Shown here one piece after another: positions 6,101-28,608 of a stretch of DNA of 64,000 nucleotides. This DNA is from Xylona heveae TC161. Its lineage: Eukaryota > Ascomycota > Xylonomycetes > Xylonales > Xylonaceae. Position 1 is the first letter of the stretch. Each line of letters opens with the position of its first letter. The position numbers were made by a program, and so were the translations under genes. Location of the stretch: contig NW_017264202.1 in NCBI RefSeq assembly GCF_001619985.1, forward strand, positions 806,001-870,000, written 5' to 3'. Below the pieces are notes generated by a model. The model was not told where the DNA came from and searched no databases. It saw nothing but the letters and a program-made list of their open reading frames with translations.

Positions 6101-7395
6101 AGGGGCCGGTTCTTAATCATGAGGAGATGCTGCGTGCAGAGTCTCGTCGACGGTCGATGGACCTTCTGAGGCAGTTTGGCGGCGGGTCTCCTGTTTATCT
6201 AGAAAGACGGGATTCGTCAGGATCGACCTGGTCAAGCTCGAGCAAGGTTGGCGCTCATAAAAAGCGTCGATCTAGTCTCTTTGGCTTGCTCAGCAAACCT
6301 CCTACTCCAGAGGTACCCCATGGAAGCCGCGAGAGTGCAATCACACATCTCGCAAACTCAAAAGCTGAACCTGATCCTGCAAATCCGCCGTTGAAAACAC
6401 AGGAAGGCAGTGGTAACAGTGCTCGGCCAAAAGATATAGCTGAGAAGCGGGGAAGAAATAAGTTACAGAGATCTTCGACCAGCCAGTTCGTTCAAGCATT
6501 GGACGAGAAGAAAAAGAAACGTTTCTCCGGTCTTGGCGTAAGTCTTCTCTAAACAATGCGGGACGCACTCAGTAGTAAAGTTTACTAAAAAATCGTCAAG
6601 GGAATTTTTGGTAGGTCAGACAATAATCCCAAGCAAGGGCACCAACCATTTCCTGCTGGCCCAAATGTACTTGTCAAGCATAGCCACACTCGTCGAAACC
6701 GCGAAAGTCAGGCCCTCACGCAGCAGCAAGCAAAGCAAGTGGCGCCAGTCTCCCCCAATGACGCTGTTCCGCATCCTTCTGCAGCCGGCTATACAAACTG
6801 GTCTGCAGAGCCATCAGCCACGGCCTTGCCCGAGCCATATCAGGCGAATACCTATCAGGACGTTGGGGAACAGATCACAGAATCAGACCGTGGAACAACG
6901 CCACAAAATTTCTTAGAAGGTCATGGTCGTACTTCACCTCATCCACAGCCCCCATTTTCCGGGTTTGATCAGTCTTGGCACCCTTCTGGCAGTTCAGGAC
7001 AATATCTTCAACATTGGTCTCACGACTCGACACCTCGAATTAATACAACCAGTAATCAGACAGAGGATCCATGGCGCATAGATGTCCCTCTGCCTTCCTC
7101 CCCACTGAAAATCGAGCATCCCGGTGAAGATTACTATCAACACCCTGCCCAAAATTACCATTACCAAGAGGATCCACAATACCGGGAGTACAATTTTCAT
7201 CGTGCCCCTCAAGCCGACAGCGTCTCGCCGCTCAACGCCCCTGTCCCTGGGGCTGGCCCCGTGGGTCCGCTGAGCATCGACGATCCGTTGACCAAATTAA
7301 GCTCGGGTTCTCCATCTCCAATCCAGGAGCTTCCCGGCGCAGAAAACCCGCAACACCATCACTCCGCTGCTTATGCCTCAGGGTTTCGAACATGA
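137..7395 (+). CDS. Very large intrinsically disordered fungal protein, function unknown
   Basis: Four exons fit one frame: 137-183, 243-4827, 5173-6537 and 6601-7395, giving about 2263 residues. The ATG at 137 is chosen because the first exon splices in frame to a conserved-looking N-terminus with TKKWVEAKGYSYDGDDWG at about residues 45-62. Nearly all the rest is low-complexity Ser/Pro/Thr/Glu sequence with no catalytic domain visible. Short basic patches ending in FGxL or GIFGR recur towards the C-terminus (KKRRSSLFGLL in exon 3 and KKKKRFSGLG joined to GIFGRS across the last junction), which may be membrane- or partner-binding motifs. Intron 3 (6538-6600) uses the acceptor CAAG; the later GTAG would break the frame. 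Intron 2 is long (345 nt), and retaining it would end the protein after five further residues. I cannot name the family; disordered scaffold or septal-pore-associated proteins look like this, but that is only a guess. Gene structure is secure. Confidence 0.85.
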
Positions 7396-19724: not shown

Positions 19725-22214
19725 ATGTTCCGCCCGGCGACGCCGCTTTCTGTCCTCCTTCTCGCCGCCTTTGTGCTCCTGCTTCTCTCTACCATTTCAA
19801 CACCGATCATTAAGGCGATTCCGCTGGCTACATACAATGGTGTAGATTTTGGCGTGTTTGGATATTGTAAGGGCGATCAATGCAGCAGCATCGGGGTGGG
19901 CTATAACACTGGTACGCTTCAGTCCTTGAAACCTGTCTTTATCCTTGGAGACCTTTGAATTTTCGGCTGTTATGGAATAGCCGGGAATGGTCATATGTAG
20001 AATTGTCGGGCACGCGGCATCTCACTTGGAATTTTTACTGACATTTCTTCTCAGATGGATTGTTTTCAAATACGGAAAATGACTTTTCCTTGCCGTCGAC
20101 AAGCCGGCGCTCGCTCTCATCCATTTTGATTGTCCACCCCATAGCGGCCTTCCTCACCCTGATATTGCTCATTCTCTCGCTGACCGCCCACTTCCATTCT
20201 CCTTCTCATTCGCCGCGCTACCTTCTCTTCCTACTGATCCTTACGCTGCCTACTTTACTCGTTTCTCTACTTGCATTCCTCGTCGATATACTACTTTTTG
20301 TTCCCCATATGCGATGGGGAGGATGGATCGTTCTCGCAGCCACCATTCTGATCGTCGCCAGTGGCATTGTCAGTTGCGCTATGCGCCGGACTCTCGTTAG
20401 TCGCAGGGCAAAGCGAAAGCGGGTTGCCGAAAATGCCGAGATGAACGGACAGAATTACTACAGCAACATGCAAACCAGTCTAGCCCGCGCTGACTCTCCC
20501 CCGCCGCTCAGTGGTCAATCGACTGCGCCTTTGTCAGGAACGTCGAGCAACCCAGACAAGCTACCTCAGTTTGCCACTTTTGATGTGGAGCCCAAGGACC
20601 GTGCTAGCACTGAAGATCAGAGACCGTTGAATCCGACCGTTCAATCGCCGCCTGACAACGTTGGTATTGCAATTTCCCCTGATGGTCCCGTTCACGCTGG
20701 ACCAATGCCGCCGCCGGCGGGTATGCGCCGGGGTCCATCTGACCCATCCTTGCGTGCCCAAACCGTAAGCCCTTCGATTTATTCGAACAGCTCTGGGGGC
20801 CCACCATCCGGTGCAGGCCGAGGCCGTGGCATGTATCCTCCACGTGGTGACTACGGAAGGTCGCCGCCTCCTGGAGCTTTCCGTGGACCTCCGCCAGGCT
20901 ACAATGGCCCGCCGCGAGGAAGGGGCTCTCCAGGGCCTGGGCCTGGGCCTGGGCCTGGACCTTATCAAGGTCCTTCCCCTAGCCCATATGGACCTCCTCG
21001 AGGCAGAGGCAGCCCGGGTGCTTATCCAGGCCCGTATCCCGGCCCATATGGACCTCCACGTGGAAGAGGTAGTCCTGGTCCTGGGCAATTCCCTCGTATG
21101 CCATCGAACGGCTCGGTAGGTCCCCGAGGAAGAGGATCTCCTGGACCGAATGGACCTTATCCACCTTCGGGTCCATACGGACCTCCGCCAGGACCGAATG
21201 GCTCCTTCCGTCAAGGTCCGCCTCCAATGCTATATGGCGGCATCCCAGGTCCAAGGGCGTCGCCTGGCCCAGTCATGGGCCCTTCCGACCAAAAACTGGC
21301 CCTTAGACGATCACCTCCTCCAGGATTATCTCCTGTTGGACCTGGCGAAGGTCCTGTCGGGCAGGCAATAGAAATGGATGCCGCTACTTCTAATCCATCC
21401 TTTGCGGGCCCTGGACATCAAATTGTGGGCGGTAGTGGTTTATCTCAGGGTCAACGCTCTAGCCCACTTCCCCGTGGAGGCAGCCCTGCACTCCCTGGGC
21501 CAATGCCTGGAGCACTGCCGGAGGTTGAAGAACCGCAAGTCCCCCCGTTCCTGACGTAATAAGATATTCATGCTGACCGAAAATCCCAGGGCCTATATTC
21601 CTCCAAGAGCGGCATGGAACAGAAGCAGAAATGCGAGCCCCTCGGTTCCTAACGTCGCCCCAACCCCGCCGCCCCCGATTCAGCCTCATGAAGAGGCCCT
21701 CGTCCAGGGTCCTGTTGAGCTTCCCGCCAGCCCTCCCCCAATGCCGGTTCAAGACAATCCGCAACATAGGCGAGTGGGTTCCAGCGACGACTACTACGAG
21801 GACGTGGATTATAGATTTGTGGAACCTGAAGCCATTCCGGGAGGTCACATGCCCTCGTCGCTGATGCCTGGATATGAGATTGGGCCAACTGTTCCTGTCG
21901 CGTCTCAACCTGATCCTAACCTTGCGGAGCATCACTCATACGAAGACCTTCACGAGGGCGCACGGTCGCCAGCTGCCAGTGATATCAGCCATTTCACTTC
22001 GGTGTCTCAGCGCCCAGTCAACCCCAATTGGCACCCTCCGCCGCCGCCACCCAACATGATGCCGCCAACTCGAAAACCCGTACAGCAGCGAGAGGATGTG
22101 TTGCTTGGTGGAAACCCCGACTTCGAGCTTCCTTCAAGGGGTCGTGGCCGTGGTGCAAGAGCAGCTGGCCCGTACCCCTCCGGAGGCGGCCCATATGGTT
22201 CGAGCAACATTTAA
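19725..22214 (+). CDS. palI: pH-response regulator PalI (Rim9/SUR7-family membrane protein)
   Basis: Exon 1 19725-19911, exon 2 from 20055, last exon from 21590 to the stop at 22214. The N-terminus has TM1 (PLSVLLLAAFVLLLLST) and the family signature FGVFGYCKGDQC; three more TM segments follow at about residues 80-165. The long cytosolic tail is rich in Pro/Gly, with PGPGPG and GPPRGRGSPG repeats. PalI helps place the PalH pH sensor in the plasma membrane in the alkaline Pal/Rim pathway. Oddity: exon 2 reads into TAA at 21557. Either a 34-nt intron 21556-21589 is spliced out (770 residues), or the protein ends at 563 residues. Removing 22 nt between two CTGAC copies would instead restore the reading PPFLT-ENPRAYIPPRAAW. 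Membrane part and identity are secure; the tail structure is not. Confidence 0.9.
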
Positions 22215-23045: not shown

Positions 23046-23117
23046 GCCCTGCTGGCGCAATGGTAGCGCGCGAGACTTCTAATCTCGAGGTTGCGGGTTC
23101 GAGTCCCGCGTGGGGCT
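23046..23117 (+). tRNA. tRNA-Arg, anticodon UCU
   Basis: A full cloverleaf can be drawn. The acceptor stem GCCCTGC pairs with GTGGGGC (two G-U pairs), the D stem is GCGC/GCGC, the anticodon stem CGAGA/TCTCG encloses loop CTTCTAA with anticodon TCT, and the T arm is GCGGG-TTCGAGT-CCCGC. The discriminator is T. No intron. A T-run follows at 23131-23139, suitable for Pol III termination. Confidence 0.93.
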
Positions 23118-23584: not shown

Positions 23585-23636
<52 letters not shown>

Positions 23637-23740
23637 AGCCATACCGGGAAAAACCACGACACCTTCTAGACCACAATCTGCCACACCCTACTGTCTTTCT
23701 CTACACCATTGAACCTCAGTTTCCCAAAATCTGAGACATA
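23118..23740. promoter_or_regulatory. Upstream region of the AIM11 gene
   Basis: Carries the tRNA terminator T-run and the promoter and leader of the gene at 23741. The leader contains the CT microsatellite described separately. No other gene is supported. Confidence 0.55.
23586..23634 (+). repeat. (CT)n microsatellite, about 24 units
   Basis: An uninterrupted CT run about 105-155 bases before the ATG at 23741. CT-rich tracts are common core-promoter or leader elements in filamentous ascomycetes, so this may influence transcription start choice. Length polymorphism between strains is likely. Confidence 0.95.
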
Positions 23741-24397
23741 ATGGGCTTCTCATCAATAACATCCTGGTTCTCGGGCAGCGGCTCTGCTGCTCCCCCTGCC
23801 GAGTCATCTTCACCACCGTCACCTCCACCTACGATTCCAGCAGCAGCAACAGCATCAACATCATCAACAGTACCCGCTACACCTACATCAAACACAACAA
23901 CACCAATGACTCCAACGACTCCAACGACCCCACCCGAGCTTCTCTCCCCCGCGACGCGCACGCGGAAACAACTCTCCCTTTTCTTCGGCGGCGCGACCTT
24001 CTTCCTCATCTCCACGCTCATCACCCGGCGATCTCTCGCGAAACGGCGCCTCGCCAGCGCCCCGTCCTTCTACCACCCCAGCAATGCCGCGCCGCAGGGC
24101 AAAGTCAACGGCGCCATGGACGCGCTGGAAGCCCTCAACATTGCGACCATCAACGTGACCTCTCTCGGCATCATGACTGTCGGCGGCGCGCTCTACGCAT
24201 TTGATATTTGCACGCTGGACGAAATGAGACGCAAGATCCGCGGCGGGCTGGGCGTCGATGGCACAGGCCGCTCGGCAGAACAAGCGGAGGAGAACATCGA
24301 GGAGTGGATTGCAAGTGTGATGGCGCGCAAAGAGGACAAGGAGCGCAAACGCGCGGGGGACGAGGGATTGGTCAATGAGCGCGGCAAGGCGCGGTAG
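23741..24397 (+). CDS. AIM11: Altered inheritance of mitochondria protein 11 (AIM11)
   Basis: Single exon, 218 residues. The first 65 residues are a low-complexity Ser/Pro/Thr segment (ending MTPTTPTTPPELLSP). Then come RKQLSLFFGGATFFLISTL (a hydrophobic segment at about residues 73-92), the conserved-looking RRSLAKRRLASAPSFYHPSN, a second hydrophobic segment (NVTSLGIMTVGGALYAFDI, about residues 137-155) and a charged C-terminus ending KRAGDEGLVNERGKAR. Two membrane spans with a basic loop between them and the overall size fit the fungal AIM11 family, small mitochondrial membrane proteins named from a yeast mitochondrial-inheritance screen; the molecular role is unknown. The start is the only ATG upstream of the conserved part. 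Confidence 0.8.
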   Translation: MGFSSITSWFSGSGSAAPPAESSSPPSPPPTIPAAATASTSSTVPATPTSNTTTPMTPTTPTTPPELLSPATRTRKQLSLFFGGATFFLISTLITRRSLAKRRLASAPSFYHPSNAAPQGKVNGAMDALEALNIATINVTSLGIMTVGGALYAFDICTLDEMRRKIRGGLGVDGTGRSAEQAEENIEEWIASVMARKEDKERKRAGDEGLVNERGKAR

Positions 24398-28543: not shown

Positions 28544-28608
28544 AAAAAAAAAAAAAAAAAAAAAAAAAAANNNNNNNNNNAAAAAAAAAAAAAAAAAAAA
28601 AAAAAAAA
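28544..28608 (+). repeat. Poly-A tract interrupted by 10 unknown bases
   Basis: A-run from 28544 to 28608 with N at 28571-28580, followed by a C6 run. The gap is an assembly gap inside a homopolymer, so its true length is unknown. Confidence 0.97.

What the first reader, a model, noticed from the sequence alone, without database searches (positions are those of the whole stretch)
21546..21600. Possible newborn 34-nt micro-intron in palI, made by a 22-nt insertion plus recruited exon sequence
Exon 2 of palI reads ...PPFLT then TAA. Deleting 22 nt (GTAATAAGATATTCATG plus CTGAC) restores an uninterrupted reading PPFLT-ENPRAYIPPRAAW, and the insert is flanked by a 5-bp direct repeat CTGAC. The insert begins with a GT donor; the second CTGAC is a perfect fungal branch consensus; and the neighbouring old coding bases CGAAAATCCCAG supply an acceptor. 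Splicing GT...CAG removes 34 nt (22 new plus 12 old coding), which restores the frame at the cost of four residues. That is the expected outcome of intron birth by insertion with partial intronisation. The alternatives are a truncated PalI tail or an error.
Basis: partly seen in the sequence, partly recalled or inferred. Interest (0 to 1): 0.85.

Follow-up and report, generated by a model that had tools for sequence, protein, structure and literature searches.

The report
Possible 34-base intron breaking palI
A fungal gene of the pH-sensing type is interrupted by a tiny intron-like segment that would have to be spliced out to read the whole protein; it may be a newly arisen intron, but it looks too short for this kind of fungus and could equally be a small insertion that cuts the protein short.

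Summary
In a SUR7/PalI-family gene (window 19725-22214, +) the exon-2 frame ends in two TAA codons at 21557-21562, and strong coding signal resumes one frame over. The 22 nt at 21556-21577 lie between two copies of CTGAC. In a splice model trained on 264 kb of this genome, GT 21556 to AG 21589 (34 nt, phase 2) is the best of 74 frame-restoring joins: near-perfect branch (TGCTGAC), average acceptor, poor donor (about 5th percentile).

The newborn-intron story is not shown. The flanking repeat is weak evidence: 1 of 109 control introns has one by the strictest rule, 16 or 27 of 109 with 3 or 6 nt of slack. The "recruited old coding" bases carry no coding signal. An ordinary intron would look the same. 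Against splicing, 34 nt and a 20-nt donor-to-branch distance lie below the introns I trust here and below 2,022 Fusarium introns (minimum 42 nt). A 52-nt join with the same donor and branch also restores the frame. No relative or RNA was reachable. I judge a spliced micro-intron of either origin about 0.5, newborn origin about 0.28, a truncating unspliced insertion about 0.3.

The parts
19725..19911 (+). exon 1 of a SUR7/PalI-family gene (palI/RIM9-like)
   Evidence: start from the gene finder; Pfam SUR7 positions 4-79 at window 19746-19916; right-hand boundary read by eye
19912..20054 (+). intron 1, GTACGC...CTGAC...CTCAG, about 143 nt; donor read by eye, my gene finder placed it at 19867
   Evidence: Pfam match resumes at 20057
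20055..21555 (+). exon 2: membrane segments plus Pro/Gly-rich region, frame A
   Evidence: Pfam SUR7 E=3.9e-21; coding score +22.1 over 21201-21555
21551..21555 (+). CTGAC, first copy of the 5-nt direct repeat (last 5 exon bases)
21556..21577 (+). 22-nt segment proposed as the insertion: 17 nt (4 of 17 G+C) plus second CTGAC
   Evidence: no second exact copy of the 17-mer found in the 24.3-Mb assembly
21557..21562 (+). tandem TAA TAA closing frame A
21556..21589 (+). 34-nt candidate intron, phase 2: GAC|GTAATA ... TGCTGAC ... CCCAG|G
   Evidence: top of 74 frame-restoring joins in the range scanned
21571..21577 (+). branch-site candidate TGCTGAC, branch A at 21576, 13 nt before the last G of the acceptor
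   Evidence: branch score at 96th percentile of 112 calls
21556..21607 (+). alternative 52-nt intron, same donor and branch, CCAAG acceptor
   Evidence: second of 74 joins
21570..21572 (+). ATG of frame B inside the 22 nt, poor context (T at -3); possible restart
21590..22214 (+). downstream coding tail, frame B, to the stop codon
   Evidence: coding score +39.7 over 21590-22211; no Pfam match

Best explanation
Most likely the segment is a spliceosomal micro-intron, removed at least part of the time as GT 21556 - AG 21589 (34 nt, phase 2; possibly 52 nt to AG 21607). Removal joins the membrane part of the protein to its tail. Shown: both sides are coding in different frames, and the GT, branch and AG signals lie where a join must be. 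Inferred: that it is spliced at all; that the weak donor and cramped donor-to-branch spacing make splicing inefficient, so unspliced RNA ends at TAA TAA and gives a tail-less protein. The origin is left open. A staggered double-strand break filled with 17 nt and leaving a 5-nt repeat is roughly as likely as, or somewhat likelier than, a shrunken ordinary intron.
For: Coding signal switches frame here. The 34-nt join ranks first of 74 frame-restoring joins. Branch at 96th and acceptor at 59th percentile of 112 intron calls; total signal score at the 22nd. Branch-to-acceptor distance of 13 nt is ordinary (median 16 in 83 introns). A random 22-nt insert with a 5-nt repeat gives an equal-scoring frame-restoring intron in 68 of 4000 (genomic filler) or 78 of 4000 (shuffled filler) trials, and with the donor inside the insert and length up to 75 nt in 6 or 11 of 4000. 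The 34 nt are 38% G+C, near the intron mean of 41.9% (109 introns), against 58-59% in the flanking exons. Frame B is open for 219 codons.
Against: 34 nt is shorter than every intron call I trust: of 127 calls, 3 were under 44 nt, namely this one and two 25-nt calls that I set aside; at the loosest setting 5 of 172 were (22, 25, 25, 34, 41 nt). Donor-to-branch distance 20, against a minimum of 26 in 83 introns with a clear branch; a looser set of 89 holds one of 25 and, from a discounted 25-nt call, one of 12. No intron below 42 nt in 2,022 Fusarium introns, and only 3% with T at +5 of the donor (PMC5677156, passages). Donor at about the 5th percentile. Calls under 45 nt are no commoner than decoys: 4 of 141 real, 10 of 135 GA-AG decoys, 5 of 129 GT-AC decoys. 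A strict consensus scan of the held 264 kb found 10 matches, none with this donor-branch spacing. No RNA, no relatives.
Confidence: 0.5

Rival explanations
1. Unspliced insertion allele. A small break-repair insertion put the gene out of frame; the protein ends at 21556 without its tail, and the splice-like signals are chance. The loss is tolerated because this protein is a helper.
For: 34 nt and 20-nt donor-to-branch spacing fall below the trusted range. The 17-nt filler is AT-rich, a composition found in 1062 of 91560 exonic 17-mers of the sample, though nine 17-mer positions elsewhere in this gene's exons 2 and 3 are as AT-rich. In Neurospora the palI homologue pal-9 can be deleted without loss of growth at alkaline pH (PMC4996508, passages); in A. 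nidulans a palI null still signals partly (PMC5026065, passages).
Against: Signals this good arise by chance in about 2% of simulated insertions (68 and 78 of 4000). The downstream frame is intact and keeps coding signal, so any loss must be recent.
Confidence: 0.3
2. Ordinary old intron that shrank, shared with relatives; no 22-nt insertion ever happened and the CTGAC repeat is chance plus branch consensus. This is the second origin covered by the best explanation, not an addition to it.
For: CTGAC matches the branch consensus learned from this genome; with 3 or 6 nt of slack 16 or 27 of 109 control introns show an equally long frame-compatible repeat. In fission yeast 25.1% of conserved and 29.2% of gained introns have boundary repeats, not different (PMC3629103, passages). 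The 12 'old coding' bases carry no coding signal.
Against: The strict repeat, exactly the last 5 exon bases with the right frame, occurs in 1 of 109 control introns. No trusted intron here is as short.
Confidence: 0.22
3. Assembly or sequencing error.
For: The assembly has short N runs (window 28571-28580; L023 5003-5017).
Against: A 22-nt composite insertion is not a usual error type (general knowledge); the nearest N in the window is 7 kb away.
Confidence: 0.05
4. Gene fission with stop-and-restart: the tail is translated separately from the ATG at 21570.
For: TAA TAA closes frame A and an ATG in frame B follows 7 nt later, all inside the 22 nt.
Against: Poor start context (T at -3); reinitiation after a long reading frame is inefficient in fungi (general knowledge).
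Confidence: 0.03

Closest known systems
Introns gained during double-strand-break repair (Daphnia neointrons)
   Same: Short direct repeat at the edges of an insert; frame lost if unspliced (PMC3443670, passages; PMC4202315, passages).
   Different: Those were found by comparing intron-bearing and intron-free alleles; here there is one genome, no allele without the segment, and the insert is only 22 nt.
Protointrons of Saccharomyces
   Same: Weak signals, G5 less well represented in the donor, low splicing efficiency expected (PMC6726248, passages).
   Different: Protointrons are known from RNA reads; none available here.
Intronization of coding sequence (S. pombe SPBC29A10.02)
   Same: Coding bases proposed to be recruited into an intron (PMC3629103, passages).
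   Different: There two point mutations made the sites and an EST supported it; most putative intronizations in that study were disproved by transcripts (50 and 77 disproved, 1 supported, 11 without data).
Standard short Pezizomycotina introns
   Same: GT...CTGAC...CAG anatomy and branch-to-acceptor distance.
   Different: 34 nt against 42-529 nt in Fusarium (PMC5677156, passages) and 44 nt or more in the trusted set here.

Membership tests
Spliceosomal (U2-type) intron | GT donor, branch A, AG acceptor joining two coding frames | tested here: met
   best of 74 joins; coding on both sides
Spliceosomal (U2-type) intron | Length and donor-branch spacing within the range the host uses | tested here: not met
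   34 nt and 20 nt; minima 44 nt (124 of 127 calls, three short ones set aside) and 26 nt (83 introns; one of 25 in the looser set)
Spliceosomal (U2-type) intron | Removed from RNA | not testable with these tools
   no RNA data
Recently gained intron | Absent from close relatives or other strains | not testable with these tools
   no homologue in genome contigs, viral contigs or plasmids, which are not fungal collections; the own genome has no relatives held
Break-repair (NHEJ) intron gain | Direct repeat at the edges beyond chance | tested here: inconclusive
   1, 16 or 27 of 109 control introns by slack 0, 3 or 6; 1, 8 or 14 within 40 nt
Break-repair (NHEJ) intron gain | Filler of identifiable source | tested here: inconclusive
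   no second exact copy of the 17-mer in the assembly; 5 copies at 2 mismatches against 2 for the reversed control; no cox1 match, so no mitochondrial DNA seen in this assembly to compare
SUR7/PalI protein family (PF06687) | Pfam profile above cut-off | tested here: met
   76.1 bits, cut-off 29.6; the specific name palI/RIM9 is recalled, not tested

The most novel reading that the evidence does not exclude
A newborn intron caught at birth: a 22-nt break-repair insertion whose 17-nt filler brought the donor and whose repeated CTGAC became the branch site, with the acceptor taken from old coding sequence, giving a working 34-nt intron, shorter than the minimum reported for 2,022 Fusarium introns (PMC5677156).
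Probability: 0.28. Interest if true: 0.72.

Novelty: new member of a known kind. Interest (0 to 1): 0.38.

Why it matters
How introns arise is still argued. The 2012 review, of which I saw passages, lists five break-repair gains as unambiguously identified events (PMC3443670). A case where the inserted letters, the repeat and the recruited splice site are all still readable would make the mechanism testable with one RT-PCR and one strain comparison. It would also show that a filamentous ascomycete can splice with only 20 nt between donor and branch. If it is not spliced, it is a simple truncating allele of a partly dispensable signalling helper.

Tried and rejected
Relatives: five homology scans found nothing, a plasmid search had no match, and the PDB sequence search gave only two unrelated weak matches (E 0.77 and 0.79). 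The scanned collections are bacterial, archaeal, viral or plasmid, so this is no evidence about fungi. Species naming by rRNA failed: one 5.8S match, below the cut-off, in a degraded-looking stretch. Source of the 17-mer: no second exact copy in the assembly; pieces of the 22 nt recur in the window at 10 nt once and at 11 or 12 nt not at all. A class of micro-introns: rejected. The only other calls under 44 nt at the two stricter penalties were two of 25 nt. One (L016) has a poor donor and no coding signal upstream. For the other (L027 7326-7350), which does have coding signal on both sides, I see by eye a 55-nt alternative from GTGCGT at 7296. My gene finder is home-made, without homology, and its decoy runs gave nearly as many calls as real ones (135 and 129 against 141), so its intron set is noisy; in intron 1 of this very gene it misplaced the donor by my reading. 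I dropped 3 of 112 calls under 44 nt before the controls, and 3 of 127. The strict donor/branch spacing scan had only 10 matches; in this spacing bin 0 real, 4 in the reversed control, 0.9 in shuffles. A 2025 paper (abstract only, PMC11782384) reports direct repeats at or near the borders of each of 213 introns and reads them as insertion marks; it cuts both ways here. Stop-and-restart considered and ranked low.

Full report
What is there. Window 19725-22214 (+) holds a gene whose first two exons match Pfam SUR7/PalI (76.1 bits against a cut-off of 29.6 for the exon-2 frame; both exon pieces). The long Pro/Gly-rich part runs in frame A to 21556 and meets TAA TAA. Frame B is open 21555-22214. 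A phase-specific coding model trained on 264 kb of the same assembly (window plus twenty 10-kb stretches) gives +22.1 for frame A over 21201-21555 and +39.7 for frame B over 21590-22211. The other forward frames, and all three reverse frames over the tail, are negative. So one gene is interrupted between 21556 and about 21590.

Can it be spliced? Signals learned from the intron calls were donor AAG|GTAAGT, branch TGCTGAC and acceptor TACAG|G. I listed the GT-AG pairs in the region (donors 21301-21560, up to 300 nt) that join frame A to frame B: 74 joins. The 34-nt join 21556-21589 scores highest. The 52-nt join 21556-21607 with the same donor and branch is second, 2 units lower. Donor GAC|GTAATA is at about the 5th percentile of 112 calls, the acceptor at the 59th, the branch at the 96th, the sum at the 22nd. 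The weak points are spacing and length. Donor G to branch A is 20 nt, against a minimum of 26 and 5th percentile of 38 in 83 introns with a clear branch; a looser set of 89 adds one of 25 and, from a 25-nt call that I discount, one of 12. The shortest calls I trust are 44-48 nt; of 127 calls three were shorter, two 25-nt ones and this one, and at the loosest setting 5 of 172. With the three set aside, 0 of 124 gives an upper 95% bound of 2.4% for introns under 44 nt. In Fusarium 2,022 introns of 226 core genes span 42-529 nt, and the donor has G at +5 in 93% and T in 3% (PMC5677156, passages). The 52-nt join avoids the length problem but not the donor-branch one. It must also skip a CAG 13 nt past the branch (5 of 83 introns skip a YAG at least 11 nt past the branch), use AAG (18 of 109) and span 31 nt from branch to acceptor (95th percentile 31.7).

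Is it chance? I put random 22-nt inserts (17-nt filler plus 5-nt repeat) into 61 long exons of this sample. An equally good frame-restoring intron of 30-150 nt appeared in 68 of 4000 trials (genomic filler) and 78 of 4000 (shuffled filler); with the donor inside the insert and at most 75 nt, in 6 and 11 of 4000. That favours an intron over a blind frameshift, by a factor that the length argument largely eats up. My 0.5 against 0.3 is a judgement, not a computed posterior.

Was it born here by insertion? First, frame B is open from 21555, so removing 22 nt gives a readable frame under any origin. Second, 5-nt repeats near a donor with the right frame occur in 1 of 109 control introns if copy one must be exactly the last five exon bases, but in 16 and 27 of 109 with 3 or 6 nt of slack (8 and 14 of 109 within 40 nt). 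Published work agrees that such repeats can be common in old introns: 25.1% of conserved and 29.2% of gained introns in fission yeasts, not different (PMC3629103, passages). The contrary case is Daphnia, where 43% of gained introns had flanking repeats (PMC3443670, passages) and 61.1% of neointrons (55 of 90) against 16.2% of established introns (100 of 617) had significant internal repeats (PMC4202315, passages). Third, the 12 bases said to be old coding score 0.15, 0.38 and 0.54 in the three frames, which is no information. In favour: the strict form of the repeat is rare (1 of 109); the exon side (GAC) lacks the usual AAG before the donor; the 17-nt filler is AT-rich (4 of 17 G+C; 1062 of 91560 exonic 17-mers in the sample are as low, and nine positions elsewhere in this gene's exons 2 and 3 are too); and a birth would explain the odd length. 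The filler has no second exact copy in the assembly. A mitochondrial origin cannot be checked, because no cox1 match was found in the assembly.

If not spliced, the protein lacks its tail. That would be bearable: the Neurospora homologue pal-9 is dispensable for growth at alkaline pH (PMC4996508, passages), and an A. nidulans palI null retains some signalling (PMC5026065, passages). The same Neurospora passages note that Rim9 is fully required in S. cerevisiae and C. albicans, so tolerance is not general. A restart at the ATG at 21570 is possible on paper but its context is poor.

Verdict. The frame break is real and intron-like. The 34-nt micro-intron is the leading reading at about even odds, its birth by insertion about 0.28, and a truncating insertion about 0.3. 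One RT-PCR and one relative would settle it.

Noticed in passing
window 23046-23117: tRNA-Arg (anticodon TCT) between palI and the next ORF.
   Followed up: no
window 23738-24397: 219-aa ORF with Ser/Thr/Pro-rich start and no Pfam match; it reminds me of fungal AIM11 (recalled, untested).
   Followed up: no
window 23586-23634: Perfect (CT)n run of about 49 nt upstream of that ORF.
   Followed up: no
window 28571-28580; L023 5003-5017: Short runs of N: the assembly has small gaps.
   Followed up: no
L027 7296-7350: Apparent 25-nt intron call (7326-7350) that I read by eye as possibly a 55-nt intron from GTGCGT.
   Followed up: partly
L007 1501-1582: Sub-threshold 5.8S-like stretch on contig C6, looking like a degraded rDNA fragment.
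   Followed up: partly
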